This document shows, in pieces, positions 2 to 38,513 of a DNA stretch of 64,000 nt. Where the stretch lies: the NCBI GenBank assembly GCA_037833965.1, contig AP031354.1, positions 22,794,001 through 22,858,000 on the forward strand, read 5' to 3'. The notes under the pieces were generated by a model, which saw only the letters and a program-made list of their open reading frames with translations, was not told the DNA's origin and searched no databases. The DNA comes from Marchantia polymorpha subsp. ruderalis (lineage: Eukaryota > Streptophyta > Marchantiopsida > Marchantiales > Marchantiaceae). The position numbers and the translations under genes are program-made. Every line of letters begins with the position of its first letter. Position 1 is the stretch's first letter.

Positions 2-1252
2 CGCTATGCCGACCTATATCGATATCTGCTAACCCTCCAGTGTCCCGAAGGCATGGATTTGGAACAGCGAACTGTCTTTATTCATAAGGCAGGCCCGTAC
101 CAACTCCAGCAGGGGGTTTTGTTCAAGAAGATGGCAGATGAGCGCTTATGCAGATGCCTGGAGGAATCAGAGGTACCAAGAATAGTGAGTGCGATGCATA
201 CAGAGGAGGCGGGTGGACACTATGCCACCAGGAACACGGTCACAAAGATCCTAAATGCGGGGTATTGGTGGCCGACCATGTTTAAGGATGTTCTCGATTA
301 CATCCGCAAGTGCGACAGTTGCCAGAGGACGGGGAGACCGACGCCTACAACACGCTGGCCCCTGACTCCCATCATGCCTCTAGCACCGTTCGAAAAGTGG
401 GGTATTGACTTTGTAGGGCCGATACAACCAGTGACTAGAAGTACACGAAGGCGCTACATTCTGGTAGCAACGGACTACGCCACCAAAATGGTAGAGGCCA
501 GGGCCACCAGAAGGGATGATGCTGCCACAGTGGCAGCATTCTTGTTTGAGTCGATCATCACACGCTACGGATGTCCCTTAGAGCTAGTCAGCGACCGGGG
601 CACGCATTTTCTGAATCAGATCATCGAAGATCTGACACGGTATTTCCACATCAAGCACCGGAAGACTACTCCATACAATCCCAAGGCAAATGGACTGACG
701 GAGAAGTCCAATGGTCTGCTGTGTAAAATACTACTCAAGGTCACGGTGAATCACGCTCACGACTGGGATACGAAGCTAGCAGCCGCTCTATGGGCGTACC
801 GCACAGCTGAGAAGATCACGACCAAACAGACACCATACTTTCTGGTGTATGGGCAACACCCGATCCTCCCGATCGAATTTGAAGTACCCACCCAACGAAC
901 GTTGGATTTGCAGAGGATGGGCGCAGAGGAGAGTCAGCTCTACAGGTTACAGGAGGTCACGCTGCTGGATGAGAGGAGACGAGACGCCGAAGATCGCACC
1001 AGGAAAATCCAGCTCCGCCGAAAGGAGAGATACGATAAAAAGATCAAACCGGTACTACTGCAGGCGGGTGATTTGGCATTGCTCTACGACAGCAGGCATG
1101 CCAGATTCCCAGGCAAACTGCACCTAAGGTGGATGGGACCTTACAGGGTTGTCGAAGTCTTCCCGAATGGATCCATCCAACTTGCGGACCTGGCCGGCGA
1201 TTTGTTAGGCACCCGAGTGAACGGGTGGCGGTTGAAGAAATACCACATGTGA
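2..1252 (+). CDS. Ty3/gypsy integrase, C-terminal part of pol (copy 1, 5' cut by window edge)
   Basis: The frame is open from the window edge, so this is the end of a longer pol polyprotein. The first ATG is at 53, but residues before it match the RNase H-integrase linker of the second copy near 23530. The integrase carries an N-terminal zinc-binding region ending in CDSCQRTGR. A DDE core follows, with D in GIDFVGP, D in SDRGTHF and E in LTEKSNG. The C-terminus ends RVNGWRLKKY with no chromodomain, as in the Athila/Tat-like (non-chromovirus) branch. Integrase joins the element cDNA to chromosomal DNA. The frame has no stop or frameshift in the visible part. A polypurine tract and an LTR start within 40 bp after the stop codon. 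Confidence 0.93.
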   Translation, partial: RYADLYRYLLTLQCPEGMDLEQRTVFIHKAGPYQLQQGVLFKKMADERLCRCLEESEVPRIVSAMHTEEAGGHYATRNTVTKILNAGYWWPTMFKDVLDYIRKCDSCQRTGRPTPTTRWPLTPIMPLAPFEKWGIDFVGPIQPVTRSTRRRYILVATDYATKMVEARATRRDDAATVAAFLFESIITRYGCPLELVSDRGTHFLNQIIEDLTRYFHIKHRKTTPYNPKANGLTEKSNGLLCKILLKVTVNHAHDWDTKLAAALWAYRTAEKITTKQTPYFLVYGQHPILPIEFEVPTQRTLDLQRMGAEESQLYRLQEVTLLDERRRDAEDRTRKIQLRRKERYDKKIKPVLLQAGDLALLYDSRHARFPGKLHLRWMGPYRVVEVFPNGSIQLADLAGDLLGTRVNGWRLKKYHM

Positions 1253-1276: not shown

Positions 1277-1287
1277 GAGGAGGGGGG
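1277..1287 (+). other. Polypurine tract of gypsy copy 1
   Basis: GAGGAGGGGGG lies directly before CA and the LTR start TGTGGTACC. The same arrangement occurs before LTR D. It is the expected site of plus-strand priming and fixes the 5' end of the 3' LTR. Confidence 0.85.
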
Positions 1288-1796
1288 CATGTGGTACCCC
1301 ACTTTTGGCAATTTTGAGGAAATTAAAACATTTTTGGAAAACTGTACCCTGGCAGCGTTGTAAATAGCCTTCGGTACATCAAAATAGAGTGAATCCGGAA
1401 GATCGCGGGGATTCTCGAGGGATCTTGTAGAATCTGGGATTTGGGGTGCCGCAGTAAGGACAGGCACCACCCTCCCTGCGAGCTCTGCAGTTAGGATCTC
1501 TACGGCGCAAGGCGCAAAACCCGCCTTCGGAGGTTGCGTCCGCGGCTGTAGGGAAACCCTCCCTAATTAGGTCAACCCTCGGGCGCCTTGACCAAGTCAG
1601 GGTCTCGTTGGAAAGAGCTCGACGCGGTGATTCTAACGAGCCCAAGAACGCTTGGAACGGACGAGGACTTAGGGAGTTATCGCTACTGGAAGAAACGGAG
1701 GCGGTCGCCTACGGCGGAAGGAGTTCGCCACCGGCGCGAATTCCGCCTACGCGGAAGGGGGAATCAAGTTTTGTCCTATGCGCGGACGAAGGCGTT

Positions 1797-1812
1797 CGCC
1801 TGTGCACAGGCG
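1797..1812. repeat. Example of the CGCCT...AGGCG palindrome family
   Basis: CGCCTGTGCACAGGCG is a perfect 16-bp palindrome. Further copies lie at 1858-1873 and 2904-2919 and at many places in every LTR copy, both in the leader and inside the U3 ORF. Confidence 0.9.
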
Positions 1813-2358
1813 AAGTAGGGTTAGGGAAGGCGCGAAGTCCGCCTACGCACAGGCGTTCGCCTGTGCACAGGCGCTTCGGCGTCGGCGGAAAATCCGCCTT
1901 GGGCCCTAGAAATGCGCCTTGTGAGGTAGAAAGTGTACGGCGCCTTCCGCGCCAGCGCAGCGCCGCGTACGTCGGAAGAGCCGCCAGAGTAATCCCATCG
2001 GTACGGACCATGCGGACGGCACGGGTGGATGCGCTCTTGGACGGACGGAGTTGCGGCGGCGGAAGCGCCGACGGAGAGACAAGGAACGGACAGATTGGAC
2101 GGAGACGGCTGACCACGGCCAACGCCTTCCGCGCCAGCGCAGCGCCGCGGACGGAATTCGCCTGCGCACAGGAGAACGCCTGTGCACAGGAGGATGTTCA
2201 AGTTCCGCGCCGGCGGAGAATCCGCCGAGGCTCCTGCCTGCGCACAGGCAGGAGTTGAATTTTTGTCCGACATGCGGACACACGCGTCAAGGCAGAGGGA
2301 GATTGGCCGAGGGGCGGTACGAACAAGTGTACCGCGCAAGGCGGAAAACTCGCCTTCG

Positions 2359-4618
2359 ATTTTCCGCCATTGTCCATCGACCATCCCGGGAAGTATGTGC
2401 GGGAGAACGAGGTCGACACTGATGCGGAGGAGTCACCGACTTCTACCCCATCAAGACGGAGGGACGAAGGGAGACACACCCCTGCAGCGCGAGTGCCGCG
2501 GAAGCGGCGATGGAGGGAAGAGTCCGAAGAGGAGCAGCATCAAGAACCCTCTGCTCCCATTCGACCGCGGCCGCTGTGCGAGCCATACAGCCGGCCGAAG
2601 CAGAAGGCACGCAGACTGGTGTTACCAGCTGACAGTGCGGACACGGCGACGATTGCGACGGAGATAGGAAGTGCGTCGCCAGAGAGGCGAGAGGAAGCGC
2701 GGACGACCGTAGGAGCAACGGGCCACGCTGCAACCTCGTCGGGAGAGAGGCCGCCTACGGGCCAAGGGCCTCCGGAGTTACCACGTGCGATGCGGACAGA
2801 TGTTCCGTTCGCGCACAGGCAAACCTCCAAAACGGACGAGCCTCCGCGGACCGGCGAACACAAGTGGACGTGGATCTACGCTTACGCGTGGGAAGGAGCA
2901 GTCCGCCTGTGCACAGGCGCTCACCTGTGCACAGGTCGCCTGTGCACAGGACACCTCCACACGTGCCGCCTGTGCACAGGCAAGAATCACCCCCGTTCCA
3001 ACGTAGGAAGGGGAAGGAGCCGGCGGAAGAACCGCCTACGAGACACCGGCCCTCGGGGCCAGACCCTCCGGCGCACCACGCGCCGCAATTCGCGCCTTCG
3101 GCGCCAGGACCTTCGAGCAGAGGAGATACGAGCAGAGAGCGTGCGGAGGCCGCACCATCGGCGGGAAGTCCGCCGATAGATGCGCCTTCGGCGGTAGGGC
3201 CTATAGGCCAAGGAACATCGGGCGTGCGGCCCCCGGCCATGTCGCCTTCGGCGATAGATGTCCGCGGCGCTACGCCTGCGGCGGACAAGGCGCCGGCAAA
3301 TGCGCCTGCGCACGGGCCGGGCACAGTCCCCACGGACCGATCAAGGGAACAACAGACGGAGGAGCGGAGTGACTGTCCGCGGGATGAAATCTCGATGCGC
3401 GATGCGCAATCAAACCCCGCGCAGCCACCCTCCGCTCGATCGCCTTCGGCGGCGGACGACGGAGGCAGAGAGGACGCGGTAGACCATCAACAAGCGAGAG
3501 ACGGGGATGCCGCACGGGTACATTCGCCTTCCGCCTTAGACATTTTGGCGACGAGCAGCGAGGCTGCAGCCGTGCCTTCGCAGGCAGCACACGTCGACGA
3601 CGTGCAGCCCCACTCGGGGCAGTCGCCGACGCAATCAATGGCGACTGAAATTCTCCACTCGGATGATGACGACGGAGGCTCCACGGAAGAAATGTCAGGA
3701 GCAGAAGACACCGAGGAGGAGGAGGAGGAAATTGTTGGAGCGCCGGCGGCGGCGCTCTCTGAGCAGGTGATTCCGTTGCTGCGGTACTTGGATCGCAAGG
3801 TCGATAAATACGCCGACCCACTCCAGCCGGGATCTTACATCGAGTTAGTGCGCAGGCGGACTCGCACTAAAGTCCACACCAGCAAGCTATTAGCTAGAGT
3901 GGACCAGGAGTTGAAGGACTTGAAGGAGAAGCATGCGTGCTTGTGGGGTCAGTACAAGCTTAATCAGAAATTCTACAAGCACTCCGAGAAGATGAAGGAT
4001 GAGAAACTGGGCGAGCTCACCAAGGAGCAGGTGAAGGTCAAGGAAGCACTCGATTCTAAACAGGCCCAGAATCGGATTTTGTCAGAGGAGCTTGTGCGAC
4101 AGACGCGGTTGTTGGAACAATGTCAGCTCGCACGGCAGGCGGATGAAGAATTAATCCGCAGGTTACAGTCAGAGTGTGGCGAATTGAGAGCGCAACGTGC
4201 TGAAGCCGAATCGCAATTAGTGATAATTGAAGAGGATCGCAGGAAGGAGGCGGATCGCACGAAGGTGGAGACGGCGCGGCGAGTCGCCCACTGTCTCAAG
4301 GGCTACGCCCACTGGGAAGTGAAGGCGCAGGAGAAACTCACACTGCGTGAGTTTGAATTGCGCGCAGCCGGGTTGTTGTCAGGCGACAGTAGGAGTCGGC
4401 GGAAGGTAGCAAAGAAGCTCGAAGCCTTTCTGTCAAAGGCACAGGATACCATGTCCGCCCTCGAGGGGGAGGTGTCCGCGGCGTTGCAGAGGTTGGGACT
4501 GCGCAGTCGAGCGGAAGAGTGGCAGGGTAGGGAGTTAGTGCGCGGCAGTCGGCCGCGCAGGAGACGTAGTACAGGTTCCGCGGAGTGTAGTGTAGCGTGG
4601 TTCCGTGCAGGCGTGTAG
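2359..4618 (+). pseudogene. U3 ORF remnant in LTR A (N-terminus deleted, one frameshift)
   Basis: This is the remnant of the LTR-encoded protein that is intact at 6370-9507. The N-terminal domain of about 300 residues is lost in the 1,055-bp deletion. An open frame from about 2370 carries the acidic and Arg-rich linker. Near 2825-2840 one base is missing relative to copy C (CCAAAACGG in place of CCGCGGACGG), and the reading continues in the frame that ends at 4618. That second frame keeps the palindrome-coded VHRR repeats, the acidic run, the coiled coil and the usual C-terminus. It is non-functional as a full protein. The downstream half is nearly identical to the intact copies, so the damage is recent. 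Confidence 0.8.
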
Positions 4619-4654
4619 CGTAGTGCAGTGTAGTGTTAGGTAGGACTTAGAAGG

Positions 4655-4660
4655 TATAAA
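4655..4660 (+). promoter_or_regulatory. TATA box of LTR A
   Basis: TATAAA lies 37 bp after the U3 ORF stop and is followed by a short hairpin at 4667-4683. The position is conserved in copies B, C, D, E1 and K. It marks the probable U3/R boundary about 30 bp downstream, leaving roughly 950 bp for R plus U5. Confidence 0.65.
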
Positions 4661-5412
4661 ATAGTTCCAGGCGTTTTGCCTGGGGTTCTTTCCCAAACTC
4701 AGAAGTATAGATCAGGAACCCATTTCCTTTGCGTGTTTGTGTCCTTGAGTTCTGTCACCACGCATGAGGAGTTACAACTTAGCGTTCCGCATTTTGTAGC
4801 TGAAGGCCTTCGGCCGAATGTTCAGAGCTCGTACATTGGTTAGAGACTTGAGTAGTTCGGATCTGCACCTGCGGGTGACTGCCGATGCTCAGAGCCAGTG
4901 ACTAGTTAGATACTTGAACAGTTTCGCCCCTACACCTTCGAGTGTTTCTTTCTGATTGTACTCCTTGGGATTTTTCCCCTGAATGCCAAAGTGAAGTTTT
5001 GCTACTTCGTGTAAGCCTTGGTTGTAAATTCAGGTTACGCTGCAGCAGGTGCCTTGAGGGTAACCCCTGTAGTATTTCTGGGAATGACAAGTGCCTGAGA
5101 ATTCAAACTCTTCAATAGACTGTTGTTGTGTTACTGGAATGTTTCTCAGTGAGCCCTTCAGTGCGGACCTGTGTTCTCTGCGCGTTTTGTGAGTTGAGAG
5201 TGTTGTTCACCGCGTATGAGTGACTTCGATCCGAAGTAGGCAGTCCAAACCGGGTTTCCTACACTAGCAGCAAGCTAGTGGAAGTGTTGTAAAAGCCGGA
5301 GTTGGAAGTCACTGCCCGCAGCTTTGCCGAGTGTGCTCTTGAGAGACTTTCCCCCTGAAATCTTGAAGTAGAGGTCCTAACGGATCTCTGGGTTGTGTTT
5401 CTGTAGTTTCAG

Positions 5413-5440
<28 letters not shown>
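5413..5440 (+). repeat. GT dinucleotide microsatellite in U5 of LTR A
   Basis: About 14 uninterrupted GT units. The same site holds shorter or longer GT (or CA) runs in B, C, D, G and K, and only a short run in J and E1. Length varies between copies. Confidence 0.9.
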
Positions 5441-5443
<3 letters not shown>

Positions 5444-6369
5444 GCTGCACTGTGCGACCTCCGAGTGCGCTCCGAGTGGACACTTGCAGTATTTCTGGGA
5501 GTGACAGTTGCCTGAGAATTCAAACTCCTCAATAGTCTGTTAAAACGTGACACTTTGTACCCTGTGTGTTCCTCTGTCCCTGTGGGTTCGACCTTTCTAC
5601 CACTATATTGCAGTTTTAGCCTTTAGTGGGTTATTACAACAGGCGAAGTAGGGTTAGGGGAGGCGCGAAGTCCGCCTACGCACAGGCGCTCGCCTGTGCA
5701 CAGGCGCTTCGGCGTCGGCGGAAAATCCGCCTTGGGCCCTAGAAATGCGCCTTGTGAGGTAGAAAGTGTACGGCGCCATCCGCGCCAGCGCAGCGCCGCG
5801 TACGGCGGAAGAGCCGCCAGAGTAATCAAATCGGTACGGACCATGCGGACGGGACGGGTGGATGCGCTCTTGGACGGACGGAGTTGCGGCGGCGGAAGCG
5901 CCGACGAAGAGACAAGGAACGGACAGACTGGACGGAGACGGCTGACCACGGTCAACGCCTTCCGCGCCAGCGCAGCGTCGCGCACGGAATTCGCCTGCGC
6001 ACAGGCGAACGCCTGTGCACAGGAGGATGTTCAAGTTCCACGCCGGCGGAGCATCCGCCGAGGCTCCTGCCTGCGCACAGGCAGGAGTTGAACTTTTGTC
6101 CGACATGCGGACACACGCGTCAAGGCAGAGGGGGATTGGCCGAGGGGCGGTACGAACAGGTGTACCGCGCAAGGCGGAAAACTCGCCTTCGGCGCTACGC
6201 CCCCATGTCCGCGGGGTAATACGCTCGCGGAGTTCAAATCCGCCAATTCGAGCGTGAGAGTTTAATCGACGACGGCGGAGCGTGAAGCCGCGCGTGAGAG
6301 CGAAGACCGTTCCAGCGTACAGCCGGCGCGGCCATCAAGTGAGACGTTCTTCACGAGCAAGAGCCGACC

Positions 6370-9300
6370 ATGACCTTCGACCGGGCGGCGGAGAACGTCC
6401 CATTCTTGAATTCGCGATTCCAATCTCTTGTGCGCGCTGCGCGCATCCATCTGCTGGCTGCTGAACATTCTCGACGTCGCCGCACAGGAGATTTCTTGTT
6501 GATTGAGGGAGAAGTGAGTGCGCGTGATTTGGAATTGAGGGCAATTAGAGTTTGCCGAGAGAGAAAGAAGCTCGGGCGGTGCGGAAGTAGAATGAGCGGG
6601 CGAGCGAACCCCAGGAACGCAATGACGAGACCGAGCAGATTGCGGATGGTGCCACTTCGCCTACCACAGAACGGGCTACGCGCTTTCGAGGAGCGCTTGA
6701 TAGCAAGAAAGCTCGATTTCTTGCTATGGGGATGGAACTACATCTGTGCGAATATGGTGCGCGAGTGGCTAGAGCCACAGGGACCACCCTCGCGCGGATT
6801 GCGTCCGCATGTTGATCGGTGGACAGTCCAAGATTGGGCGCAGGCGTTGGGAAGATGTGCTGGCATGCCAGGGCATCTCCTTTTCGACAGTGAGAGCATC
6901 AAGGTGACCAAGCAGGAAGAGGCGCAATTTGTGGAGCTGTTCAAGACCGGGAGGTCTACCAAGAATGGGTACAGGACCCGTGATTACAAGGATCGATTTC
7001 GCCGGACTTTGTCCGCGGCGCTGATGCAATTACTGCAGCCGCACCGCGCCTGCTACATCACATTGTGGCAGGTCTCTTTTGTGGAGTGCGTCATCGAGGG
7101 AACTCCAATTCACTGGGCGCGCATCCTGCACAGGGTGATGCGACAGCACGCGTTTGAGGAGAAGGGGGGAACTCTAAACCATCTCTCTCCTTTCCTCATC
7201 AATTTTTATCGACAGCGGAATTGTTTGACAGCGGCGGAGCTTGAACATTTTCCGCCATTGTCCATCGACCATCCCGGGAAGTATGTGCGGGAGAATGAGG
7301 TCGACACTGATGCAGAGGAGTCACCGACTTCTACCCCATCAAGGCGGAGGGACGAAGGGCGACACACACCTGCAGCACGAGTGCCGCGGAAGCGGCGATG
7401 GAGGGAAGAGTCCGAAGAGGAGCAGCATCAAGAACCCTCTGCTCCCATTCGACCGCGGCCCCTGTGCGAGCCATACAGCCGGCCGAAGCAGAAGGCACGC
7501 AGACTGGTGTTACCAGCCGACAGTGCGGACACGGCGACGATTGCGACGGAGAAAGGAAGTGCGTCGCCAGAGAAGCATGAGGAAGCGCGGACGACCGCAG
7601 GAGCAACGGGCCACGCTGCAACCTCGACGGGAGAGAGGCCGCCTACGGGCCAAGGGCCTCCGGAGTTACCACGTGCGACGCGGACAGATGTTCCGTTTGC
7701 GCACAGACGAGTTTCCGCGGACGGACGAGCCTCCGCGGACAGGCGATCACAAGTGGACGTGGATCTACGCTTACGCGTGGGAAGGAGCAGTCCGCTTGTG
7801 CACAGGCGCTCACCTGTGCACAGGTCGCCTGTGCACAGGACACCTCCGCACGTGCCGCCTGTGCACAGGCAAGAATCACCCCCGTTCCAACGTAGGAAGG
7901 GGAAGGAGCCGGCGGAAGAACCGCCTACGAGACACCGGCCCTCGGGGCCAGACCCTCCGGCGCACCACGCGCCGCAATTTGCGCCTTCGGCGCAAGGGCC
8001 TTCGAGCCAAGGAGATACGAGCAGGGAGCGTGCGGAGGCCGCACCATCGGCGGGAAGTCCGCCGATAGATGCGCCTTCGGCGGTAGGGCCTATAGGCCAA
8101 GGGACATCGGGCGAGCGGCCCCCGGCCATGTCGCCTTCGGCGATAGATGTCCGCGGCGCTACGCCGGCGGCGGACAAGGCGCCGGCAATTGCGCCTGCGC
8201 ACGGGCCGGGCACAGCCCCCACGGACCGATCAAGGGAGCAGCAGACGGAGGAGCGGAGTGACTGTCCGCGGGATGAAATTTCGATGCGCGATGCGCAATC
8301 AAACCCCGCGCAGCCACCCTCCGCTCGATCGCTTTCGGCGGCGGGCGACGGCGGCAGAGAGGACGCGGTAGGCAACCAACAAGCAAGTGACGGGGATGCC
8401 GCACGGGTACATTCGCCTTCCGCCTTAGACATTTTGGCGACGAGCAGCGAGGCTGCAGCCGTGCCTTCGCAGGCAGCACACGTCGACGACGTGCAGCCCC
8501 ACTCGGGGCAGTCGCCGACGCAATCAATGGCGACTGAAATTCTCCACTCAGATGATGACGACGGAGGCTCCACGGAAGAAATGTCAGGAGCAGAAGACAC
8601 CGAGGAGGAGGAGGAGGAAATTGTTGGAGCGCCGGCGGCGGCGCTCTCTGAGCAGGTGATTCCGTTGCTGAGGTACTTGGATCGCAAGGTCGATAAATAC
8701 GCCGACCCACTCCAGCCGGGATCTAACATCGAGTTAGTGCGCAGGCGGACCCGCACTAAAGTCCACACCAGCAAGCTATTCGCTAGAGTGGACCAGGAGT
8801 TGAGGGAATTGAAGGAGAAGCATGCATGCTTGTGGGGTCAGTACAAACTTAATCAGAAATTCTACAAGCACTCCGAGAAGATGAAGGATGAGAAACTGGA
8901 CGAGCTCACCAAGGAGCACGTGAAGGTCAAGGAAGCACTCATTTCTGAGCAGGCCCAGAATCGGATTTTGTCAGAGGAGCTCGTGCGACAGACGCGGTTG
9001 TTGGAACAATGTCAGCTCGCACGGCAGGCGGATGAAGAGTTAATCCGCAGGTTACAGTCAGAGTGTGGCGAATTGAGAGCGCAACGTGCTGAAGCCGAAT
9101 CGCAATTAGTGATAATTGAAGAGGATCGCAGGAAGGAGGCGGATCGCACGAAGGTGGAGACGGCGAGGCGTGTCGCCCACTGTCTCAAGGGCTACGCCCA
9201 CTGGGAAGTGAAGGCGCAGGAGAAACTCACACTGCGTGAGTTTGAATTGCGCGCAGCCGGGTTGTTGTCAGGCGACAGTAGGAGTCGGCGGAAGGTAGCA

Positions 9301-9507
9301 AAGAAGCTCGATGCCTTTCTGTCGAAGGCACAGGATACCATGTCCGCCCTCGAAGTGGAGGTGTCCGCGGCGTTGCAGCGTTTGGGACTGCGCAGTCGAG
9401 CGGAAGATTGGCAAGGTAGGGAGTTAGTGCGCGGCAGTCGGCCGCGCAGGAGACGTAGTACAGGTTCCGCGGAGTGTAGTGTAGCGTGGTTCCGTGCAGG
9501 CGTGTAG
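6370..9507 (+). CDS. LTR U3-encoded protein of unknown function, intact (1,045 aa)
   Basis: One uninterrupted frame lies inside the LTR, upstream of its TATA box. Residues 1 to about 300 form a conserved region rich in W, R and L, including NGYRTRDYKDRFRR and TPIHWARILHRVM. The pattern loosely recalls the 'putative plant transposon protein' accessory ORFs of Athila-like elements, an untested resemblance. Next come an Arg/Glu-rich linker and a Pro/Ala-rich middle. Palindromic DNA there encodes repeated VHRR/VHRS units near residues 475-500. An acidic run (SDDDDGG...EEEEEE) starts near 726, a predicted coiled coil spans about 806-960, and a basic tail ends in WFRAGV. No nuclease, polymerase or protease motif is visible. 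The ATG follows GAGCCGACC, conserved in copies C, D and K. Function is unknown; a structural, Gag-like or nucleic-acid-binding role is only a guess. Confidence 0.8.
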   Translation: MTFDRAAENVPFLNSRFQSLVRAARIHLLAAEHSRRRRTGDFLLIEGEVSARDLELRAIRVCRERKKLGRCGSRMSGRANPRNAMTRPSRLRMVPLRLPQNGLRAFEERLIARKLDFLLWGWNYICANMVREWLEPQGPPSRGLRPHVDRWTVQDWAQALGRCAGMPGHLLFDSESIKVTKQEEAQFVELFKTGRSTKNGYRTRDYKDRFRRTLSAALMQLLQPHRACYITLWQVSFVECVIEGTPIHWARILHRVMRQHAFEEKGGTLNHLSPFLINFYRQRNCLTAAELEHFPPLSIDHPGKYVRENEVDTDAEESPTSTPSRRRDEGRHTPAARVPRKRRWREESEEEQHQEPSAPIRPRPLCEPYSRPKQKARRLVLPADSADTATIATEKGSASPEKHEEARTTAGATGHAATSTGERPPTGQGPPELPRATRTDVPFAHRRVSADGRASADRRSQVDVDLRLRVGRSSPLVHRRSPVHRSPVHRTPPHVPPVHRQESPPFQRRKGKEPAEEPPTRHRPSGPDPPAHHAPQFAPSAQGPSSQGDTSRERAEAAPSAGSPPIDAPSAVGPIGQGTSGERPPAMSPSAIDVRGATPAADKAPAIAPAHGPGTAPTDRSREQQTEERSDCPRDEISMRDAQSNPAQPPSARSLSAAGDGGREDAVGNQQASDGDAARVHSPSALDILATSSEAAAVPSQAAHVDDVQPHSGQSPTQSMATEILHSDDDDGGSTEEMSGAEDTEEEEEEIVGAPAAALSEQVIPLLRYLDRKVDKYADPLQPGSNIELVRRRTRTKVHTSKLFARVDQELRELKEKHACLWGQYKLNQKFYKHSEKMKDEKLDELTKEHVKVKEALISEQAQNRILSEELVRQTRLLEQCQLARQADEELIRRLQSECGELRAQRAEAESQLVIIEEDRRKEADRTKVETARRVAHCLKGYAHWEVKAQEKLTLREFELRAAGLLSGDSRSRRKVAKKLDAFLSKAQDTMSALEVEVSAALQRLGLRSRAEDWQGRELVRGSRPRRRRSTGSAECSVAWFRAGV

Positions 9508-9543
9508 CGTAGTGCAGTGTAGTGCTAGGTAGGACTTAGAAGG

Positions 9544-9549
9544 TATAAA
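9544..9549 (+). promoter_or_regulatory. TATA box of LTR B
   Basis: TATAAA lies 37 bp after the U3 ORF stop, followed by a CCAGGC/GCCTGG hairpin at 9556-9572. Same arrangement as in A. Confidence 0.65.
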
Positions 9550-10520
9550 ATAGTTCCAGGCGTTTTGCCTGGGGTTCTTTCCCAAACTCCGAAGTATAGA
9601 TCAGGAACCCATTTCCTTTGCGTGTTTGTGTCCTTGAGTTCTGTCACCACGCAGGAGGAGTTACAACTTAGCGTTCCGCATTTTGTAGCTGAAGGCCTTC
9701 GGCCAAACGTTCAGAGCTAGTACATTGGTTAGAGACTTGAGTAGTTCGGATCTGCACCTGCGGATGACTGCCGATGCTCAGAGCCAGTGACTAGTTAGAT
9801 ACTTGAACAGTTTCGCCCCTACACCTTCGAGTGTTTCTTTCTGATTGTACTCCCTTGGGATTTTTCCCCTGAATGCCAAAGTGAAGTTTTGTTACTTCGT
9901 GTAAGCCTTGGTTGTAAATTCAGGTTACGCTGCAGCAGGTACCTTGAGGGTAACCCCTGTAGTATTTCTGGGAATGACAAGTGCCTGAGAATTCAAACTC
10001 TTCAATAGACTGTTGTTGTGTTACTGGAATGTTTCTCAGTGAGTCCTTCAGTGCGGACCTGTGTTCTCTGCGCGTTTTGTGAGTTGAGAGTGTTGTTCAC
10101 CGCGTATGAGTGACTTCGATCCGAAGTAGGCAGTCCAAACCGGGTTTCCTTCACTAGCAGCAAGCTAGTGGAAGTGTTGTAAAAGCCGGAGTTGGAAGTC
10201 ACTGCCCGCAGCTTTGCCGAGTGTGCTTGAGGGAGACTTTCCCCCTGAAATCTTGAAGTAGAGGTCCTAACGGATCTCTGGGTTGTGTTTCTGTAGTTTC
10301 AGGTGTGTGTGTGTGTGTGTGTTACGCTGCACTGTGCGACCTCCGAGTGCGCTCCGAGTGGACACTTGCAGTATTTCTGGGAGTGACAGTCGCCTGAGAA
10401 TTCAAACTCCTCAATAGTCTGTTAAAACGTGACACTTTGTACCCTGTGTGTTCCTCTGTCCCTGTGGGTTCGACCTTTCTACCACTATATTGCAGTTTTA
10501 GCCTTTAGTGGGTTATTACA

Positions 10521-12361
10521 AACACAAGCCTGCGCGCCTTCTGCTTCGGCCGGCTGCACACTTCGTGCAATGGCCGCTGTCGAATGGGAGCAGTGGGTTC
10601 TTGATGCTGCTCCTCTCCGGACTCCTCTCTCCATCGCCGCTTCCGCGGCACTCTTGCTGCGGGAGTGTTTCTTCCCTCGTCTCTCCGCCTTGGCGGAGTA
10701 GAAGTTGGCGACTCCTCTGCGTCAGTGTCGACCTCGTTATCCCGCACATACTTCCCGGGATGGTCGACGGACAACAGCGGAAAACGAGCAAGCTCCGCCA
10801 CGGTCAAACAATTTCGCTGCCGATAAAAATTGATCAGGAAAGGAGAGAGGTGATTTAGAGTTCCCCCCTTCTCCTCAAAAGCGTGTTGTCGCATCACTCT
10901 TTGCAGGATGCTCGCCCAGTGAATTGGAGCTCCCTCGATGATGCACTCCACAAAAGAAACCTGCCACAATGTGATGTAGCATGCGCGGTGTGACTGCAGT
11001 AATTGTAGCAGTGCCGTCGCTATAGTCCGGCGGAAACGATCTTTGTAATCGCGGGTCTTGTACCCATTCTTGGTAGACATCTCCCGCTTGAACAACTCCA
11101 CAAATTGCGCCTCATCCTACTTTGACACCTTGACGCTCTCGCTGTCAAAGAGGAGGTGCCCTGGGATGCCGGCACACCTTCCCAATGCCTGCGCCCAGTC
11201 TTGGACGGTCCACTGATCAACATGCGGACGCAATCCGCGCGAAGGTGCTCCCTGTGGCTCCAGCCACTCGCGCACCATATCCACACAAATGTAGTTTCAT
11301 CCCCACAGCAAGAAATCGAGCTTTCTTGCAATCAGCCGTTCCTCGTAGGCGCGCAACCCGTTCTGTGGGAGACGGAGAGGCAGCATCCGCAATCGGTTGA
11401 GCCTCGACATCGCGTTCTTAGAATTCGCCTGCTCGCTAATTCTTTCTCTGCTCCGCTCGAGCTCCTTGGTCCCTCGGCAAACTCTAATCTCACTCAATTC
11501 TAAATCACGCGCACTCAATTCTCTCTCAATCAACAAATAATCTTTTGCGCGGCGCTGCCTGGAATGCTTAGCAGCTAGCAGAAGGACGCGCGCAGCTCGC
11601 ACTAGAAAATGGAATCACGAATTCAAGAATGGGGCGCTCTCCGTCTCACGGTCGAAGGTCATGGTCGACTCTTGATCCTGAGGGCCGAATCAATTGATGG
11701 CCGCGCCGCCTCTACGCCAAAACGGTCTCCGCTCTCATGCGCGGCTTCACGCTCCGCCGACGCTGATTTAACTCACACGCTCGAATTGGCAAATTTGAAC
11801 TCCGCGAGCGTACTACGCCGCGGACATGGGTGTGCAACGCCGAAGGCGTCTTTTCCGCCTTGCGCGGTACACTCGTTTGTACCGCTCCTCGGCCCATCCT
11901 CCTCTTCCTCGGCACCCGTCCGCGCATCGGACAAAAGTTAAACTCCCGCCTGTGCGCAGGCGGAATCCCCGGCGGATTCTCCGCCGGCGCGGAACTTCAC
12001 CCGCCTGTGCGCAGGCGCTCGCCTGAGCATAGGCAAATTCCGTCCGCGCTGCTGCGCTAGCGCGGAAGGCGTTGACCGCAGTCAACCGACTCCGTTCAGA
12101 CTGTCCGTTCCTTGTCTCTCCGTCGGCGCTCTCGCCGCCGCAACTCCGTCCGACCAAGAGCGCATCCATCTGTCCCGTCCGTACGGTCCGTACGGATTTT
12201 ACTACTCCGGCGGCTCCTCGCTCGTCCGCGCTGTTGCGCTGGCGCAGAAAGCGCCGTACAATTTCTACCTCCGAAGGCGGATTTCCCGCCAACGCCTTAG
12301 CGCCTGTGCGCAGGCGACCGCCTGTGCGTAGGCGAACTTTGCTCGTCCGCCTAGGCAGAGA
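10521..12361 (-). mobile_element. Inverted giant-LTR fragment F
   Basis: Read on the minus strand, this matches the leader and first ~40% of the U3 ORF, whose ATG is at 11662. The N-terminal reading is broken between frames near 11300 and 11100, so the ORF is a pseudogene. At 12361/12362 the LTR sequence stops abruptly inside a GCCTAGGC-type palindrome and gag sequence begins. LTR B joins its other end at 10520. It is best read as an old LTR that received one insertion and was later joined to gypsy copy 2 by a deletion. Confidence 0.78.
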
Positions 12362-12362
12362 T

Positions 12363-14264
12363 TCCTACATCAAGTTGTTCGAATCAGTGTCCATCGCTAA
12401 TCGCGAGATCCACGACGAGGACCGACTACAGATTTTTCCAAGTCTTCTACGGAAGAAGGCACGAAGTTGGTACAACCACGAGAGCATCGATCCGAATGGG
12501 TTGACAACATGGGCTCAACTGAAGGAGAAATTCCTCCGACGCTTCCGTGAGCTCGGCTACGACAGTCGAGTATTGACAAAGTTACGTAACCTGCAGCGGG
12601 AGAAGGAGAGTCTGCGTGACTACACCGAGAGATTTCTGGACCTCCTTGACCGAATACCGAAAACGGGGCCAGGATCCCCCTTCTCGGTGCAGCAAGCTGT
12701 GGATTGGTATGTGACCGGCTTGACTCGGAAGATGGAGACTTTTTGCCGACAAAGTAAGTGCGATACTATCGAGGACGTGATTGCATCGGCCGAAGCCTTT
12801 GAAACTTCCACTCTCAACCGAAGAGGGAGAGAGCGACGGGAATCGAAGGAGCGAAAACCGAAGGGAGGACGAAGACGACGCAGAAGCGCGACACCGTCAT
12901 CGGAAGAACAGTCCTCGGAGGAGAACCGTTCCTCATCCGAAGAAGGAGAAACCTCCTCGTCGGAGGAAGAGAAGAAGAGAAAGAAGCATGGGGCAGCAAA
13001 GAAGAAGGGCCCCCGACGAGCAACTATGGACAGAGCGCCGGGAGACATGGCATCGAAGATGGAGATCCTTGTGAAGGACTTCGCCGACCTGAAAGTTCAT
13101 GTGGTAGGCGGCAAGGATCGACAAAAATCGCCCGGGAGAGTGCGAGCGAACTTGTGGTGCACTACGTGCGGAGCGGTAGGACATGCGAACACCGAGTGTC
13201 TTACCAACCGTCCATCATTTCTAGTCAACGCAGTGGAGTGGGCACAACCGTATTATGGGGAAAGCCCCCAGTACTATGGAGAGGCGAGCGAGGAGACAGC
13301 CTACGCCGTCCAGTCGGTCCCCGCCCCTACTGCAGTTACGCAAGTGCATATCCCCCGGTATCATCCGGTAGATAGGGCCACTACGGTACCCGTGAGGCGC
13401 AGGGCCCCTCCAGGGACGTTTGACCCACCGCCACCTCGAGCTTGTTTCAATTGTGGGGAAGTTGGACACTACTCACCCCAGTGCCCCCATCCCAAAAGAC
13501 AAACCGGGTATGTTCCGACCTGTAGTAACTGCAAGAAGTCTGGGCATACTGCACCAGAGTGTGATCAACCACCAGTGCCCTGGCAAACGGTACGATTTGT
13601 GACAACTCCTGCCAAGGAGGACGTCCAAGTTAACCAGGTCGAAGTAACTTCGGACAGGAATGACGAAGAAGAAGAATGGCCGGCGGAAGAAGTTATGTGC
13701 GCACGGGTCGAAACTCGTAGTTCCAAGAAATCGAAGGAACAAGAGCGCGACACTCGCAAGCACGACCGGAAGGCCGACGACCGAACGGGAAAAGTGAAAG
13801 AGAAGGCAACCAGCAAGTCCGACTTGCGACCTGCACAAAAACCTTCGGCTATGCGAGAAGCACCAGCAGTGCGGACCGATACATCGGTCGAGGATGAGCC
13901 AGTACGCGTGCTGAAGCGGGACTATGCCCCGGATATCAGAGAGGAGGTGGCGAACTTGTTGAAGGAAGCGACCCGCAACCAAAAGGGACCAGAGCGGGAA
14001 GACTTGTCAACATCCTTTGGTGCAAAGATGGTAGCAACTCTGGAACCACGCAGGACGTCGACTCCAAACCGACGCGTCCACTATGACTTAGTCGAAGATC
14101 TCGGGAACCGACAAGTGAACATCACGTTCAACCAGCTTCTAGAGGACAACAAGACGTATCGGAAGATGTTGATGCTTTCGTTACGCCGCCCGCAGCCAAA
14201 ACCCCCCAGGTGTACCAAGTGGCCAGCGAAGACCAAGGACCTCCAGAGATCGATGTGGAAATAG
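12363..14264 (+). CDS. Ty3/gypsy Gag, N-terminally truncated (copy 2)
   Basis: Capsid-type retrotrans_gag sequence begins at about SYIKLFESV, with the conserved region KARSWYNHES through LRDYTERFLDL. A Ser/Glu-rich, then Lys-rich, segment follows near 12890-13020. Three CCHC zinc knuckles follow: CTTCGAVGHANTEC, CFNCGEVGHYSPQC and CSNCKKSGHTAPEC. Gag packages the element RNA. The same frame runs upstream to 12072, but that part is antisense LTR and not Gag, so the true N-terminus is missing. The frame ends at 14264 and overlaps the protease frame by about 55 bp in the -1 register. This could be programmed frameshifting or an indel near 14170; no canonical slippery heptamer is in phase. Confidence 0.88.
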   Translation, partial: SYIKLFESVSIANREIHDEDRLQIFPSLLRKKARSWYNHESIDPNGLTTWAQLKEKFLRRFRELGYDSRVLTKLRNLQREKESLRDYTERFLDLLDRIPKTGPGSPFSVQQAVDWYVTGLTRKMETFCRQSKCDTIEDVIASAEAFETSTLNRRGRERRESKERKPKGGRRRRRSATPSSEEQSSEENRSSSEEGETSSSEEEKKRKKHGAAKKKGPRRATMDRAPGDMASKMEILVKDFADLKVHVVGGKDRQKSPGRVRANLWCTTCGAVGHANTECLTNRPSFLVNAVEWAQPYYGESPQYYGEASEETAYAVQSVPAPTAVTQVHIPRYHPVDRATTVPVRRRAPPGTFDPPPPRACFNCGEVGHYSPQCPHPKRQTGYVPTCSNCKKSGHTAPECDQPPVPWQTVRFVTTPAKEDVQVNQVEVTSDRNDEEEEWPAEEVMCARVETRSSKKSKEQERDTRKHDRKADDRTGKVKEKATSKSDLRPAQKPSAMREAPAVRTDTSVEDEPVRVLKRDYAPDIREEVANLLKEATRNQKGPEREDLSTSFGAKMVATLEPRRTSTPNRRVHYDLVEDLGNRQVNITFNQLLEDNKTYRKMLMLSLRRPQPKPPRCTKWPAKTKDLQRSMWK

Positions 14265-14788
14265 AAGGGTGTTGTGTACGCAAGGTACCAGTAGACCCTG
14301 GATCAGGAGTCAACATAATGACGGAGGACACTGCGCGAGCCTTGGGGTTCAGTGAATACAAACCTTCGAGGCGTGTGTTGAGGTTAGCGGATCAGACGCG
14401 GAGAATGCCTGTAGGTATGCTGCGCAATGTCCGAACAAACATTGGTGGTGCGGACTTTCGGTTGAACTATATCATCCTGCAGCCCATGCTGAAGCAAGGC
14501 TATGACATCCTGCTCGGGCGACCGTGGCTGTATGGCGCACAAGTACGATGTGACAGGCGTAGGCATCGCCTTAAGTTCCCCCATCCTAAGGAGCCGACCA
14601 AGACTATCACTGTGCCCTGGACCAAGGTCCGACATGAAGGGGAGACACCGTCGACTAGTGCGGGTTACACATCGGGGATGGACAGTGATTCGGCCGCCCG
14701 ATCCGTTGAATCCGATTATTTTGTGGGATTCGTTGCTTGCTGTTTTGTACAAGAGGAACCAGACGCTATTCAACCGGAGGACGAATAG
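14210..14788 (+). CDS. Retropepsin-like protease region of pol (copy 2)
   Basis: This frame overlaps the end of gag in the -1 register. The putative active site reads VDPGSGVNIM, where the usual motif is D(T/S)G. The position and the following hydrophobic region, including YDILLGRPWLYG, fit an aspartic protease that matures Gag-Pol. A Pro at the second motif position would be unusual for an active enzyme, so this copy may be inactive or divergent. The frame ends at a single TAG (14786-14788), after which the same frame continues into reverse transcriptase. The start given is the first ATG-like codon context; translation more likely enters from gag. Confidence 0.75.
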   Translation: MYQVASEDQGPPEIDVEIEGCCVRKVPVDPGSGVNIMTEDTARALGFSEYKPSRRVLRLADQTRRMPVGMLRNVRTNIGGADFRLNYIILQPMLKQGYDILLGRPWLYGAQVRCDRRRHRLKFPHPKEPTKTITVPWTKVRHEGETPSTSAGYTSGMDSDSAARSVESDYFVGFVACCFVQEEPDAIQPEDE

Positions 14789-14794
14789 CAATTA
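14786..14794 (+). promoter_or_regulatory. Candidate stop-codon readthrough site TAG-CAA-TTA
   Basis: The only stop between the protease and RT parts of one continuous frame is TAG followed by CAA TTA. This matches the UAG-CAR-YYA context known to promote readthrough in plant tobamoviruses and discussed for a soybean Copia element. Whether it is functional or a random nonsense mutation cannot be decided from one copy. Confidence 0.45.
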
Positions 14795-15671
14795 ACGGTA
14801 GGACTGGGAAGGAGTGAGACGAGTCACACAGAGGGCATTGTCGACCTGAGTGACTGTCACGAAGTACAACTCAGTCCTGACAAGTGCTTGAAGGTATCAA
14901 GCACAGTGAAAGGAGACGAGCTAAGGGAGGTACAGGCCTTTCTTCGCCATTACGTTGATGTCTTCGCATGGAAGATAGAAGACATGAAGGGGATACCTGC
15001 ACGGTATGGAGAACACCGCATTGATTTACTGGATGAAGCAGTACCCATACGTCAACGCCAGTATCGCCTCAACCCAAAATACTCCTTGCTCGTTAAGGAG
15101 GAGATAGATAAGTACCTGAGTGCTGGCATTATCTACCCAGTGCTCAGCAGTGAATGGGTATCGCCGATTGTTATCGTACCAAAGAAGTTGACGGGTAAGA
15201 TACGGGTGTGTCAGGATTTCCGGAAGTTGAATGTAGCAACACGTAAGGATCACCACCCGCTGCCGTTCACGGATGCCATTTTAGACCATGTCGCGGGACA
15301 TGAGTGCTATAGCTTCCTAGATGGGTTCTCAGGCTACAATCAGGTGTCTATCCGGGAACTTGACAAGGATAAGACGACATTCACAACCGATTGGGGAACT
15401 TATGCGTACCACAAGATGCCCTTAGGTCTGTGCAATGCACCTGCCACCTTTCAGCGGATGATGATCAATATTTTTCAGGAGCAGCTGAGGAAGTTCCTAG
15501 AAATATTCATAGATGACTTCTGTCTTTGGAAAGCGGTCAGAACACCTAAGTCACCTGAAGCAGACCTTTGATAAATGTAGGGAGAGCAGTTTATCGCTGC
15601 ACCCCGAGAAGTGTTTCTTCTTTATGACTAGTGGAATCTTGTTGGGCCATCGTGTTTCGTCAGACGGCATT
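14789..15671 (+). pseudogene. Ty3/gypsy reverse transcriptase, broken (copy 2)
   Basis: In frame with the protease after the TAG. The RT core includes YPVLSSEWVSPIVIVPKK, IRVCQDFRKLN, FLDGFSGYNQV and the catalytic FIDD (usual form YVDD/FIDD). The wording resembles non-chromovirus Ty3 elements. After FIDDFC near 15520 a 1-2 nt loss shifts the frame; homology continues in another frame (VFGKRSEHLSHLKQTFDKC...) up to 15671. There LTR G is inserted and interrupts the thumb/RNase H junction. The remainder of the gene continues at 22822. Confidence 0.88.
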
Positions 15672-22821: not shown

Positions 22822-24777
22822 GCAGTGGACCTCGAAAAGGTCAAGGTTATACTCGAGCTTGAGCCACCAACGAATCTGAGGGAGCTTTGAGCATTCTTGG
22901 GTCATGTGGGCTACTACCGAAGATTCATACACATGTATGCAATCTTGGCGGCCGACCTGACCAAATTGTTAAAGAAGGACGAGCCTTACGCTTGGGGTGC
23001 GAAGCAGCAGTCAGCATTCGAGGCTCTTAAAGCGAAACTCACGACTGCTCCGGTACTGAGGAGTCTAGACTGGGATCGACCCTTCCATGTTTACGTCGAC
23101 ACATCTGCATTCGCCATCGGCGTCGTCTTGAGACAGAAGGATGACAACAAAAAGGATTACCCAATTTATTTCGCGAGCCGTCAGCTGTCTCTAGCAGAGA
23201 GGAAGTACACCACGACAGAGAGAGAAGCGTTGGGGATGGTGTACTCCTGCAAAAAATTTCGACACTACTTAATCTGCTACGAGTTTGTGTTCCATGTGGA
23301 TCACTACGCATTGCAACACCTAGTCAAGAAAGCCGACCTGTCCGGTCGGATAGCCAGATGGGTGCTGTTGCTACAGGAGTTCACCTACACGGTCCAGACC
23401 CGGAAAGGGGTGCATCACGAAAATGCAGATTACTTATCCAGATTATGGACCCAGCCTACCGAGGAGGAACTGGTGGACAACTTTCCGGACGAACAATTGT
23501 TTCAGTTGTCTGCTGGACAGGCGTCCCGCTATGCAGAGCTGTACCGATACCTGCTAACGCTTCAGTGTCCCGACGGCATGGACTTATAACAAAGGACTGT
23601 CTTTATTCATAAGGCGGGCCCGTACCAACTCCAACAGGGAGTTTTGTTCAAGAAGATGGCAGACGAACGTTTGTGCAGATGCCTGGAGGAAACAGAGGTC
23701 CCAAGAGTAGTAAGCGCGATGCACACCGAAGATGCGGGTGGACACTATGCCACCTGGAATACAGTCACGAAGATTGTAAATGCGGGGTATTGGTGGCCGA
23801 CTATGTTTAAGGATGTTCTCGATTACATCCAAAAATGCGATAGTTGCCAAAGGACAGGGAGACCAACGCCTACAACCCGGTGGCCCCTGACTCCCATCAT
23901 GCCTCTAGCACCTTTTGAGAAGTGGAGCATCGACTTTGTAGGGCCGATACAACCGGTGACTAGGAACACACGAAGGCGCTACATTCTGGTAGCTACGGAC
24001 TACGCCACCAAGATGGTGGAGGCCAAGGCCACGAGAAGAGATGATGCAGCCACAGTAGCAGCCTTTTTGTTCGAGTCGATCATCACGCGCTACGGGTGTC
24101 TTTCGGAGCTAATCAGCGACCGAGGCACACACTTTTTGAACCAAATAATCGAAGATCTGACACGGCATTTCCACATCAAGCACCGGAAGACTACCCCATA
24201 CAATCCCAAGGCAAATGGATTGACGGAGAAGTCCAATGGTCTGTTGTGTAAAATACTGCTCAAGGTCACGGTAAACCACGCTTACGACTGGGATACGAAG
24301 TTAGCAGCAGCTCTGTGGGCGTACCAGACAGTTGAGAAAATTACGACGAAACAGACACCATACTTTCTGGTGTATGGTCAGCATCCGATCCTCCCGAATG
24401 AATTCGAAGTACCCATCCAACGAACGTTGGACTTACAGAGGGTGAGTGCGGAGGAGAGTCAGCTCTACAGGTTACAGGAGGTCATGCTACTGGAAGAAAG
24501 GCGACGAGAAGCCGAGGAGAGCACCAGGAGAATTCAGCTCCGCAGAAAGGAGAGATACGATAAGAAGATCAAACCTGTACTCCTTCAGAAGGGCGATTTG
24601 GCGTTGCTCTACAACAGCAGGCATGCCAGATTCCCAGGCAAACTGCACCTAAGATGGATGGGACCATACAAGGTAGTCGAAGTCTTTTCGAATGGATCCA
24701 TCCAACTTGCGGATTTAACCGGAGATTTATTAGGCACCCGAGTGAATGGGTGGCGGTTAAAGAAATATCACGTATGA
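22822..24777 (+). pseudogene. RNase H and integrase part of pol (copy 2), two in-frame stops
   Basis: Continues the RT frame after LTR G. The connection region (FLGHVGYYRRFIH) leads into RNase H, with D in HVYVDTSAF, E in TTEREALG and D in FHVDHYAL. Integrase follows with CDSCQRTGR and the DDE residues in SIDFVGP, SDRGTHF and LTEKSNG. A TGA replaces an expected codon after NLREL near 22888, explicable as CGA to TGA. A TAA follows GMDL at 23587-23589, where copy 1 has GAA. From 23590 to 24777 the frame is open. There is no chromodomain. A polypurine tract and LTR D follow. Confidence 0.92.
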
Positions 24778-24812: not shown

Positions 24813-26032
24813 CATGTGGTACCTCACTTTTGGTATTTTTGAGGAAATTAAAACATTTTTGGAAAACAGTACCGCGGCAGTAGTGTAAATAGCCTTCGGT
24901 GCATCAAAACAGAGTGAAATCGGAAGATCGCAGAGATTCTCGAGAGAACTCGTAGAATCCAGGAGTGGGGTGCAACGTCGGGGACAGACATCACTCTCCC
25001 TGCGGGCTCTGAAGGTATGACCCCTTCGGCGCAAGGCGCAAAATCCGCCTTTGGCGCTAGAGGAATCCTTCAGAATTTGGTCAATTCCCGAACGCCTCGA
25101 CTTGGTTAGGGTCTTGTTGAAAAGAGCTCGATGCGCTGATTCCAACGAGCCCAAGAACGCCACGAACGGATGAGGACTCCGGGAGTTATGAAGGTAGCAA
25201 GATACTCAGCTTCTCGCCTACGAGTAGGCGAGGAAAGTTTTGTCCTATGCGCGGACGAAGGCAGTTAGCCTACGCGTAGGCGAAATAGGGTTTGACGTAG
25301 GCGCGATATCCGCCGCGAATGTCGCCTACGCGTAGGCGAGGAAACCTCTGCCCAGGCGGACGAGCGAAGTCCGCCTACGCACAGGCGCTTCGGCGTCGGC
25401 GGGAAATCCGCCTTCGGCCCTAGAAATGCGCCTTCGGGGGTAGAAATTGTACGGCGCCTTCCGCGCCAGCGCAACAGCGCGGACGGGCGAGAAACCAGCG
25501 GAGTAGTAAAATCCGTACGGACTGTACGGACGGGACGGATGGATGCGCTTTTGGTCAGACGGAGTTGCGGCGGCGAGAGCGCCGACGGAGAGACAAGAAA
25601 CGGACAGTCTGGACAGAGTCTGTTGACCGCGGTCAACGCCTTCCGCGCCAGCGCAACAGCGCGGACGGAATTTGCCTACGCGCAGGCGAGCGCCTACGCA
25701 CAGGCGTGTGAAGTTCCGCGCCGGCGGAGATTCCACCTACGCAGAAGGGAGTTCAACTTTTGTCCGATGCGCGGACGATCGCCTTCGGCGGAGGAGGATT
25801 GGCCGAGGAGCGGTACGAACGAGTGTAGCGCGCAAGGCGAGAAATCCGCCTTCGGCGCTGCGCACCCATGTCCGCGGCGTAGTACGCTAGCGGAGTTCAA
25901 ATTTGCCAATTCGAGCGTGTGAGTTAAATCAGCGTCGGCGGAGCGTGAAGCCGCGCGTGAGAATGGAGACCGTTTTAGCGTAGAGCCGGCGTGGCCATCA
26001 AGTGATTCGACCCTCACGACCAAGAGCCGACC

Positions 26033-29028: not shown

Positions 29029-29064
29029 CGTAGTGAAGTGTAGTGCTAGTTAGGACTTAGAAGG

Positions 29065-29070
29065 TATAAA
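29065..29070 (+). promoter_or_regulatory. TATA box of LTR D
   Basis: TATAAA 36 bp after the U3 ORF stop, followed by the CAAGGC/GCCTTG hairpin at 29077-29093. Confidence 0.6.

Positions 29071-38482: not shown

Positions 38483-38513
<31 letters not shown>

What the first reader, a model, noticed from the sequence alone, without database searches (positions are those of the whole stretch)
6370..9507. A ~1,050-residue protein encoded in the U3 region of a giant Ty3/gypsy LTR
The unit is an LTR by two independent junctions (integrase, polypurine tract, TGTGGTACC at 1252-1290 and 24777-24815). Its TATA box lies after this ORF, so the gene is in U3 and would be duplicated in both LTRs of every full element. 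It is intact in B and C, one stop away from intact in K, and decayed in D, E1 and J. LTR genes are rare (the MMTV sag gene is the known animal analogue), and I know of no plant LTR gene of this size. The protein has a conserved N-terminal region, an acidic run and a long coiled coil, and no recognised enzyme motif.
Basis: partly seen in the sequence, partly recalled or inferred. Interest (0 to 1): 0.88.

Follow-up and report, generated by a model that had tools for sequence, protein, structure and literature searches.

The report
Liverwort retrotransposon gene inside LTRs
A family of jumping genes, most likely in the liverwort Marchantia, carries a large, selectively maintained protein gene inside the repeats at both of its ends, a place usually regarded as holding only control signals in plant jumping genes.

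Summary
An ATG-to-stop ORF of 1,045 codons lies at 6370-9507, wholly upstream of the TATA box of a Ty3/gypsy LTR; a second intact copy (1,050 codons) is at 42460-39308. Three LTRs of the window are solo LTRs with perfect 5-bp target-site duplications and contain the ORF or part of it. In the window's own genome (by its named relatives Marchantia polymorpha) 29 of 129 scored ORF places form 17 same-strand pairs 11.0-11.2 kb apart, none in adjoining distance bands. Of 7 pairs whose ends I read, 2 are full elements with matching duplications and the same 3,171 nt in both LTRs. In a divergent subfamily (protein about half identical) 7 of 8 places show the same order, and 3 of 3 LTRs with both ends recognised have duplications. 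Whole-ORF dN/dS is 0.17-0.50 over 33 pairs, 0.25-0.31 in the seven bootstrapped. No Pfam match above cut-off and no PDB relative. Best reading: a retrotransposon accessory gene lying in U3, placed like MMTV sag, probably encoding a nuclear, oligomeric regulator. Expression and function are not shown.

The parts
6370..9507 (+). U3 ORF, copy B, 1,045 codons, intact
5639..10520 (+). LTR copy B, lacking the first ~516 nt of the LTR
9544..9549 (+). TATAAA box, 37 nt downstream of the ORF stop; presumed U3 promoter of the element
53..1252 (+). end of pol (integrase: zinc-binding and core domains) of the element whose 3' LTR is copy A
1277..1289 (+). polypurine tract GAGGAGGGGGGCA directly before the LTR
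1290..5638 (+). 3' LTR copy A; N-terminal part of the ORF deleted
38288..43707 (-). solo LTR copy C, 5,420 bp, flanked by TTTAC/TTTAC, inserted in another LTR of the family
39308..42460 (-). U3 ORF, copy C, 1,050 codons, intact
34780..38287 (+). 5' part of solo LTR J/G (upstream flank AATTT), interrupted by copy C
43713..45366 (+). 3' part of solo LTR J/G (downstream flank AATTT)
35995..37572 (+). U3 ORF of copy J, open for 525 codons
54501..59455 (+). solo LTR copy K, 4,955 bp, flanked by GAATC/GAATC
55348..57573 (+). U3 ORF of copy K up to its in-frame stop (741 codons); the same frame is open again to 58428
23590..24777 (+). integrase of a second element
24815..30041 (+). 3' LTR copy D with a decayed U3 ORF
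12033..15568 (+). gag, protease and start of reverse transcriptase of a Ty3/gypsy-type element
   Evidence: that it belongs to this family is inferred

Best explanation
It is an accessory gene of a Ty3/gypsy LTR retrotransposon that lies between the polypurine tract and the promoter, that is, in U3. SHOWN: it lies in both LTRs of full elements and in solo LTRs, the layout recurs in a divergent subfamily, and the reading frame has been under purifying selection. FOLLOWS FROM KNOWN LTR BIOLOGY: the genomic RNA runs from R of the 5' LTR to R of the 3' LTR, so the copy in that RNA is the one in the 3' LTR, downstream of pol; reverse transcription copies it into both ends; LTR-LTR recombination leaves solo LTRs that keep the gene but have the recognised promoter behind it. 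INFERRED: it is made from a spliced or subgenomic RNA, or from a second promoter in the ~1.25 kb of U3 before the ATG; the product (basic, mostly helical N-terminal region, basic NLS-like clusters, Pro-rich and acidic linker, long C-terminal helix) is an oligomeric nuclear factor that helps the element's own cycle (RNA export, import of the integration complex, or resistance to silencing). Likelihoods: anatomy 0.97; functional accessory gene of the element 0.85; nuclear regulator or adaptor 0.4.
For: Target-site duplications: 3 solo LTRs in the window, 2 full elements, 3 of 3 divergent LTRs with both ends recognised. 17 same-strand ORF pairs at 10.8-11.5 kb, 0 in each 700-bp band from 5.2 to 10.8 kb and from 11.5 to 15.7 kb. 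In 7 of 7 pairs whose ends were fetched (of 17) the 5' LTR is followed by the same PBS-like sequence, and in 6 of 7 the 3' LTR start is preceded by the purine tract. 11 of 40 integrase-PPT places have a scored ORF hit 1.18-1.25 kb into the following LTR. Whole-ORF dN/dS 0.25-0.31 in seven pairs, bootstrap upper limits 0.35-0.42. Relatives conserve the N-terminal block and an LLRYLDRKxxKY block.
Against: No transcript or protein evidence was available. The N-terminal fold could not be predicted (mean pLDDT 37), so no fold supports the functional guess; the heptad test on the C-terminal helix was not significant. The U3 leader of copy C has 7 upstream ATGs, which does not favour translation from a transcript of the whole leader. 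Constraint is weaker than on integrase (0.067, 95% 0.042-0.101) and weak in the middle of the protein (0.21-0.81 over pairs, 0.94 for the nearly identical A-C). Of 3 paired loci whose two outer flanks were both read, one has flanks that do not match. One of 8 divergent places (L084) lacks the downstream LTR part.
Confidence: 0.6

Rival explanations
1. The ORF is an env-like or structural (particle) protein of the element that merely happens to lie in U3.
For: Sense-strand extra ORFs between pol and the 3' LTR of plant elements are often called env-like (PMC7264820, parts 1 and 2 of 3 read); its place in the RNA (after pol) is that of env.
Against: No strongly hydrophobic stretch at the scale examined: hydrophobic fraction at most 0.42 in any 95-residue block; no Pfam match above cut-off. 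A transmembrane predictor was not run.
Confidence: 0.12
2. The ORF acts mainly in cis: the GC-rich, repeat-rich DNA or RNA of U3 is what is selected and the reading frame is a by-product.
For: U3 is rich in the palindrome CCTGTGCACAGG (8 in LTR C, 0.000 per LTR in 200 simulations), also inside the ORF where it encodes PVHR repeats.
Against: Selection is frame-specific: over the 33 pairs the ratio is 0.17-0.50 in frame and 0.63-2.04 in the shifted frames (e.g. B-K 0.29 against 1.07 and 1.16); constraint is strongest in the N- and C-terminal parts, not in the repeat-rich middle.
Confidence: 0.05
3. A host gene recently captured into one LTR and amplified by tandem duplication.
For: Tandem arrays with an 11.15-11.2 kb period exist.
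Against: The ORF is in LTRs of subfamilies about half identical in protein; the relatives found are many and none carries a Pfam name.
Confidence: 0.08
4. The ORF was an ordinary extra ORF between pol and the PPT (as in Tat/Athila elements) and entered the LTR when plus-strand priming moved to a purine tract just behind pol. This is an origin hypothesis compatible with the best explanation.
For: The purine tract lies only 24 nt behind the integrase stop, leaving no room for an internal 3' ORF; many OTA-group elements have extra ORFs in the internal region (PMC6317226, passages).
Against: No match to PF04195, PF10536 or PF03078; no element with the ORF outside the LTR was found, but none was looked for beyond this genome.
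Confidence: 0.35

Closest known systems
MMTV sag (U3-encoded superantigen)
   Same: ORF in the U3 region of an LTR, with expression from U3 promoters described (PMC9412291, passages).
   Different: The liverwort ORF has no Pfam match above cut-off of any kind; animal virus; sag is much smaller (recalled); sag expression is shown, here it is not.
Extra ORFs (aORF/eORF) of plant Tat/Athila/Retand/Grande elements
   Same: Accessory protein gene after pol in a plant Ty3/gypsy element; nuclear product in Grande gene23 (PMC7264820, parts 1 and 2 of 3; PMC11963269, passages).
   Different: Those lie in the internal region, before the 3' LTR, often antisense; this one is sense and behind the PPT, so it is duplicated. 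No PF04195/PF10536/PF03078 match.
Retrosat2 ORF0 (rice)
   Same: Plant Ty3/gypsy element with LTRs over 3 kb and an extra ORF of unclear function (PMC3485330, passages).
   Different: ORF0 lies upstream of the gag-pol ORF, not in U3.
Cer1 CERV (C. elegans)
   Same: Extra protein of an LTR retrotransposon needed for nuclear export of its RNA (PMC10309623, title and start of abstract in a search listing).
   Different: Position and sequence not compared here.

Membership tests
LTR retrotransposon, Ty3/gypsy | Two LTRs with TG...CA ends and a short target-site duplication | tested here: met
   Of 3 paired loci with both outer flanks read, 2 match (GCGCG, GGGTG) and 1 does not; 6 solo LTRs with duplications
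LTR retrotransposon, Ty3/gypsy | gag, protease, RT, RNase H, integrase in this order, integrase last | tested here: met
   Pfam hits in the order gag, protease, RT at 12033-15568 and RNase H, INT at 22891-24774, the latter followed by PPT and LTR; the two groups are separated by other sequence and their unity is inferred
OTA (Athila/Tat) superclade | Position in an RT/INT tree | not tested
   PBS-like GGCGCCGCTGCCGGGGA and the integrase end VNGWRLKKY look OTA-like from recall only
Tat lineage | Additional RNase H (aRH) domain | tested here: inconclusive
   No second RNase H among the 10 ORFs scanned, but pol is interrupted
Tat/Athila-type extra ORF | Lies between pol and the 3' LTR in the internal region | tested here: not met
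   PPT and LTR start precede the ORF
Tat/Athila-type extra ORF | PF04195, PF10536 or PF03078 domain (present in only a part of such elements) | tested here: not met
   hmmscan up to E 1 and up to E 10; a profile-profile comparison was not possible
U3-encoded retroviral gene (MMTV sag type) | ORF wholly between LTR start and U3 promoter, in both LTRs | tested here: met
U3-encoded retroviral gene (MMTV sag type) | Expressed, with superantigen activity | not testable with these tools
   no RNA or assay data

The most novel reading that the evidence does not exclude
A plant retrotransposon lineage has made its LTR itself the carrier of a gene: a ~1,050-residue protein family of unknown fold is duplicated at both ends of the element and left behind, in part intact, in solo LTRs across the genome, so that the element keeps a dispersed reservoir of trans-acting genes after its gag-pol is deleted. 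If those are transcribed from neighbouring promoters or in tandem units, LTR-LTR recombination would no longer end the element's accessory function.
Probability: 0.3. Interest if true: 0.9.

Novelty: new variant of a known kind. Interest (0 to 1): 0.74.

Why it matters
Plant LTRs are generally treated as non-coding control sequence. A conserved ~1,050-codon gene in U3 shows that a plant LTR can carry a protein gene, as in MMTV; it makes a near-identical, multi-copy element in a genetically easy plant available for asking what such genes do, and it warns that LTR dating, solo-LTR counts and gene annotation (at least 33 M. polymorpha 'hypothetical proteins' match it) are affected.

Tried and rejected
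Chance ORF: rejected. Antisense 448-codon ORF 8774-7428 as the real gene: not pursued; frame-specific selection favours the sense frame. Known domain: only sub-threshold Pfam and NCBIfam matches (e.g. CENP-K E 0.0018 for P0005, Extensin_1 E 0.00019 for P0006), no PDB sequence match. Viral contigs: no relative. AF2 of the N-terminal region: too poor to use, so no fold search was run. Variants among 30 near-identical copies: one search mixed strands and is invalid; one search repeats it with strands right (38 synonymous, 5 nonsynonymous single-base codon variants among 22 distinct of 30), but these copies were taken as the best protein matches, so the ratio is biased and I do not use it. Heptad periodicity: not significant. 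A gene in a plant LTR in print: the listings (20 of 29 shown) show none by title or start of abstract; most subscription papers are not held. Species of P0046 (41% identical relative): open, its genome search did not complete.

Full report
Observation. The window has a 1,045-codon ORF at 6370-9507 (+) and a second intact one of 1,050 codons at 42460-39308 (-). In 500 Markov simulations of the same LTR the longest stop-free run was at most 476 codons. The repeat unit that holds it starts TGTGGTACC and ends GGGTTATTACA. At 1290 and 24815 it follows an integrase stop and a purine tract. In LTR C (5,420 bp) the ORF occupies positions 1248-4400 and the only TATAAA is at 4437, so the ORF is in U3.

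It is an LTR. Three solo LTRs in the window have perfect 5-bp target-site duplications: C (TTTAC on the + strand), K (GAATC) and J/G (AATTT), the last interrupted by C. Copy B's own LTR lacks its first ~516 nt, and copy A, directly after an integrase, has lost the N-terminal part of its ORF.

Full elements. The window lies in a 241-Mb, 9-contig genome. All named relatives of the ORF that were found are M. polymorpha subsp. ruderalis hypothetical proteins: 4 of 4 hits, 33 of 38 (5 unnamed) and 28 of 37 (9 unnamed); the species of the window is inferred from this. The N-terminal 307 residues matched 129 scored places; 8,267 first-look candidates were not otherwise confirmed. 78 of the 129, which are the best protein matches, sit in open frames of 1,000 or more codons. 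29 of the 129 form 17 same-strand pairs 10,995-11,210 bp apart; there is none in the 700-bp bands from 5.2 to 10.8 and from 11.5 to 15.7 kb; between 15.7 and 23.4 kb there are 12, five of them at 22.0-22.7 kb, twice the spacing; opposite-strand pairs at 10.8-11.5 kb: one. I fetched the ends of 7 of the 17 pairs. Two have matching duplications: C5:26235814-26252393 (GCGCG; LTRs of 5,392 bp, internal part 5,796 bp) and C4:18311973-18328284 (GGGTG). Two lie within tandem chains (the upstream LTR is also preceded by a purine tract). One has non-matching flanks (TAGAG/GGAAG). Two were not resolved. In 7 of 7 the 5' LTR is followed by TAAGAAGCCGACAACTTC...GGCGCCGCTGCCGGGGA, which looks like a tRNA primer site (recalled). 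In both duplication-bounded elements the 3,171 nt from the ATG are the same in the 5' and 3' LTR; in the first this includes the stop codon after 1,044 codons, in the second no stop falls within the stretch. Eleven of 40 integrase-PPT places have a scored ORF hit 1.18-1.25 kb into the following LTR; the other 29 do not, but only 129 ORF places were scored.

Depth of the family. A search with a relative 58% identical to the N-terminal region returned 120 matches, 82 candidates scored of 10,211. I fetched 8 of these, chosen for long open frames. Their ORF segments are about 36-61% identical to the window protein. Seven of 8 show ORF, then homology to the downstream LTR part, in order; L084 lacks the latter. 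In 5 of 8 (L081, L082, L083, L085, L086) TATAAA follows the in-frame stop by 39-72 nt; in L079 the frame runs into TATAAA, L080 has no exact TATAAA there, and the one in L084 is not in LTR sequence. The three LTRs with both ends recognised (L079, L080, L081; 4.1-4.4 kb) have duplications, 3 of 3. I infer that the arrangement is older than the split of these subfamilies.

Selection. Nei-Gojobori dN/dS was computed between copies found in the window by DNA similarity. Over 33 pairs the whole-ORF value is 0.17-0.50. Bootstrapped: B-K 0.29 (95% 0.23-0.35), C-K 0.29, B-J 0.29, C-J 0.30, B-D 0.31, K-D 0.31, B-C 0.25, with dS 0.07-0.67. N-terminal 310 codons: 0.16-0.27 in 13 of 15 pairs, 0.08 for B-C and 0.33 for K-D. 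Middle: 0.21-0.81, and 0.94 for A-C, which hardly differ. C-terminal part: 0.07-0.34. Shifted frames over the whole ORF: 0.63-2.04. Integrase, one pair: 0.067 (0.042-0.101). Part of each branch is decay after insertion, so selection during replication is probably stronger than these values (inference).

Protein. Residues ~90-310 form a conserved block (LLWGWN...NHLSPFLINFYR), followed by basic clusters (PRKRRWR; RPKQKARRLVLP), a Pro-rich linker, an acidic stretch (net charge -20 over residues 666-760), the LLRYLDRKxxKYADP...RTRTKV block and a predicted helix of 166 residues. Pfam and NCBIfam gave only sub-threshold matches and PDB none. The N-terminal model is unusable (pLDDT 37); the C-terminal one has mean pLDDT 78.5 but pTM 0.32. 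Heptad periodicity of hydrophobic residues was not significant.

How it probably works. The RNA from the 5' LTR promoter contains the ORF once, behind pol, in the U3 of the 3' LTR (established LTR biology). Expression needs a spliced or subgenomic RNA or an internal promoter; MMTV sag uses a second U3 promoter (PMC9412291, passages), and Grande gene23 has its own promoter and a nuclear product (PMC7264820, parts 1 and 2 of 3). There are 7 ATGs and no TATAAA/TATATA in the 1,247-nt leader of copy C; of the last 18 nt before the start codon 16 are the same in 5 of 5 copies. From the basic clusters and the long helix I infer an oligomeric nuclear factor serving the element; this is a guess at 0.4.

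Known or new. The papers I saw place extra ORFs of plant elements in the internal region (PMC7264820, parts 1 and 2 of 3; PMC6317226, passages). None of the listings shows a plant LTR-encoded protein by title or start of abstract. It works like an accessory gene and is placed like sag; by sequence I could show membership of neither. I call it a new variant of a known kind.

Noticed in passing
~9690-10520 and the same part of LTRs A, C, D, K, G: From LTR-C position 4601 to the end, C-K identity is 0.94-0.99 per 200-nt block (1.00 in the last 20 nt), against 0.69-0.90 in the blocks before it. Either strong constraint on the leader RNA or exchange of R-U5 between subfamilies at first strand transfer.
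   Followed up: partly
40510-47396 and 47397-54283: Tandem duplication of 6,887 bp at 99.985% identity that cuts through LTR C and makes a truncated second ORF copy; very recent, or an assembly artefact.
   Followed up: no
G000, e.g. C4:20818876-20852474, C7:8468125-8501632, C2:31340740-31385476: Tandem chains with an 11.15-11.2 kb period (LTR-internal-LTR-internal), several units long.
   Followed up: partly
U3 of several copies, e.g. LTR C positions 510-571 and 2673-2751: The palindrome CCTGTGCACAGG (31 in the window) and the short inverted repeat CGCCTTCGGCG (28) recur in U3, also inside the ORF; about none expected per LTR.
   Followed up: partly
60742-62136 (-): Two adjacent frames with weak Roc and COR-A matches (both below Pfam cut-offs): a possible ROCO-type gene or remnant beside LTR K.
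   Followed up: no
19785-22241 (+): 818-codon frame with only a sub-threshold gag match, between two pol fragments; may be gag of another element.
   Followed up: no
C5:26252394-26254325 of G000: The duplication-bounded full element at C5:26235814 appears inserted into the U3 leader of an oppositely oriented LTR of the same family (inferred from an integrase hit on the other strand and the flanking letters).
   Followed up: no
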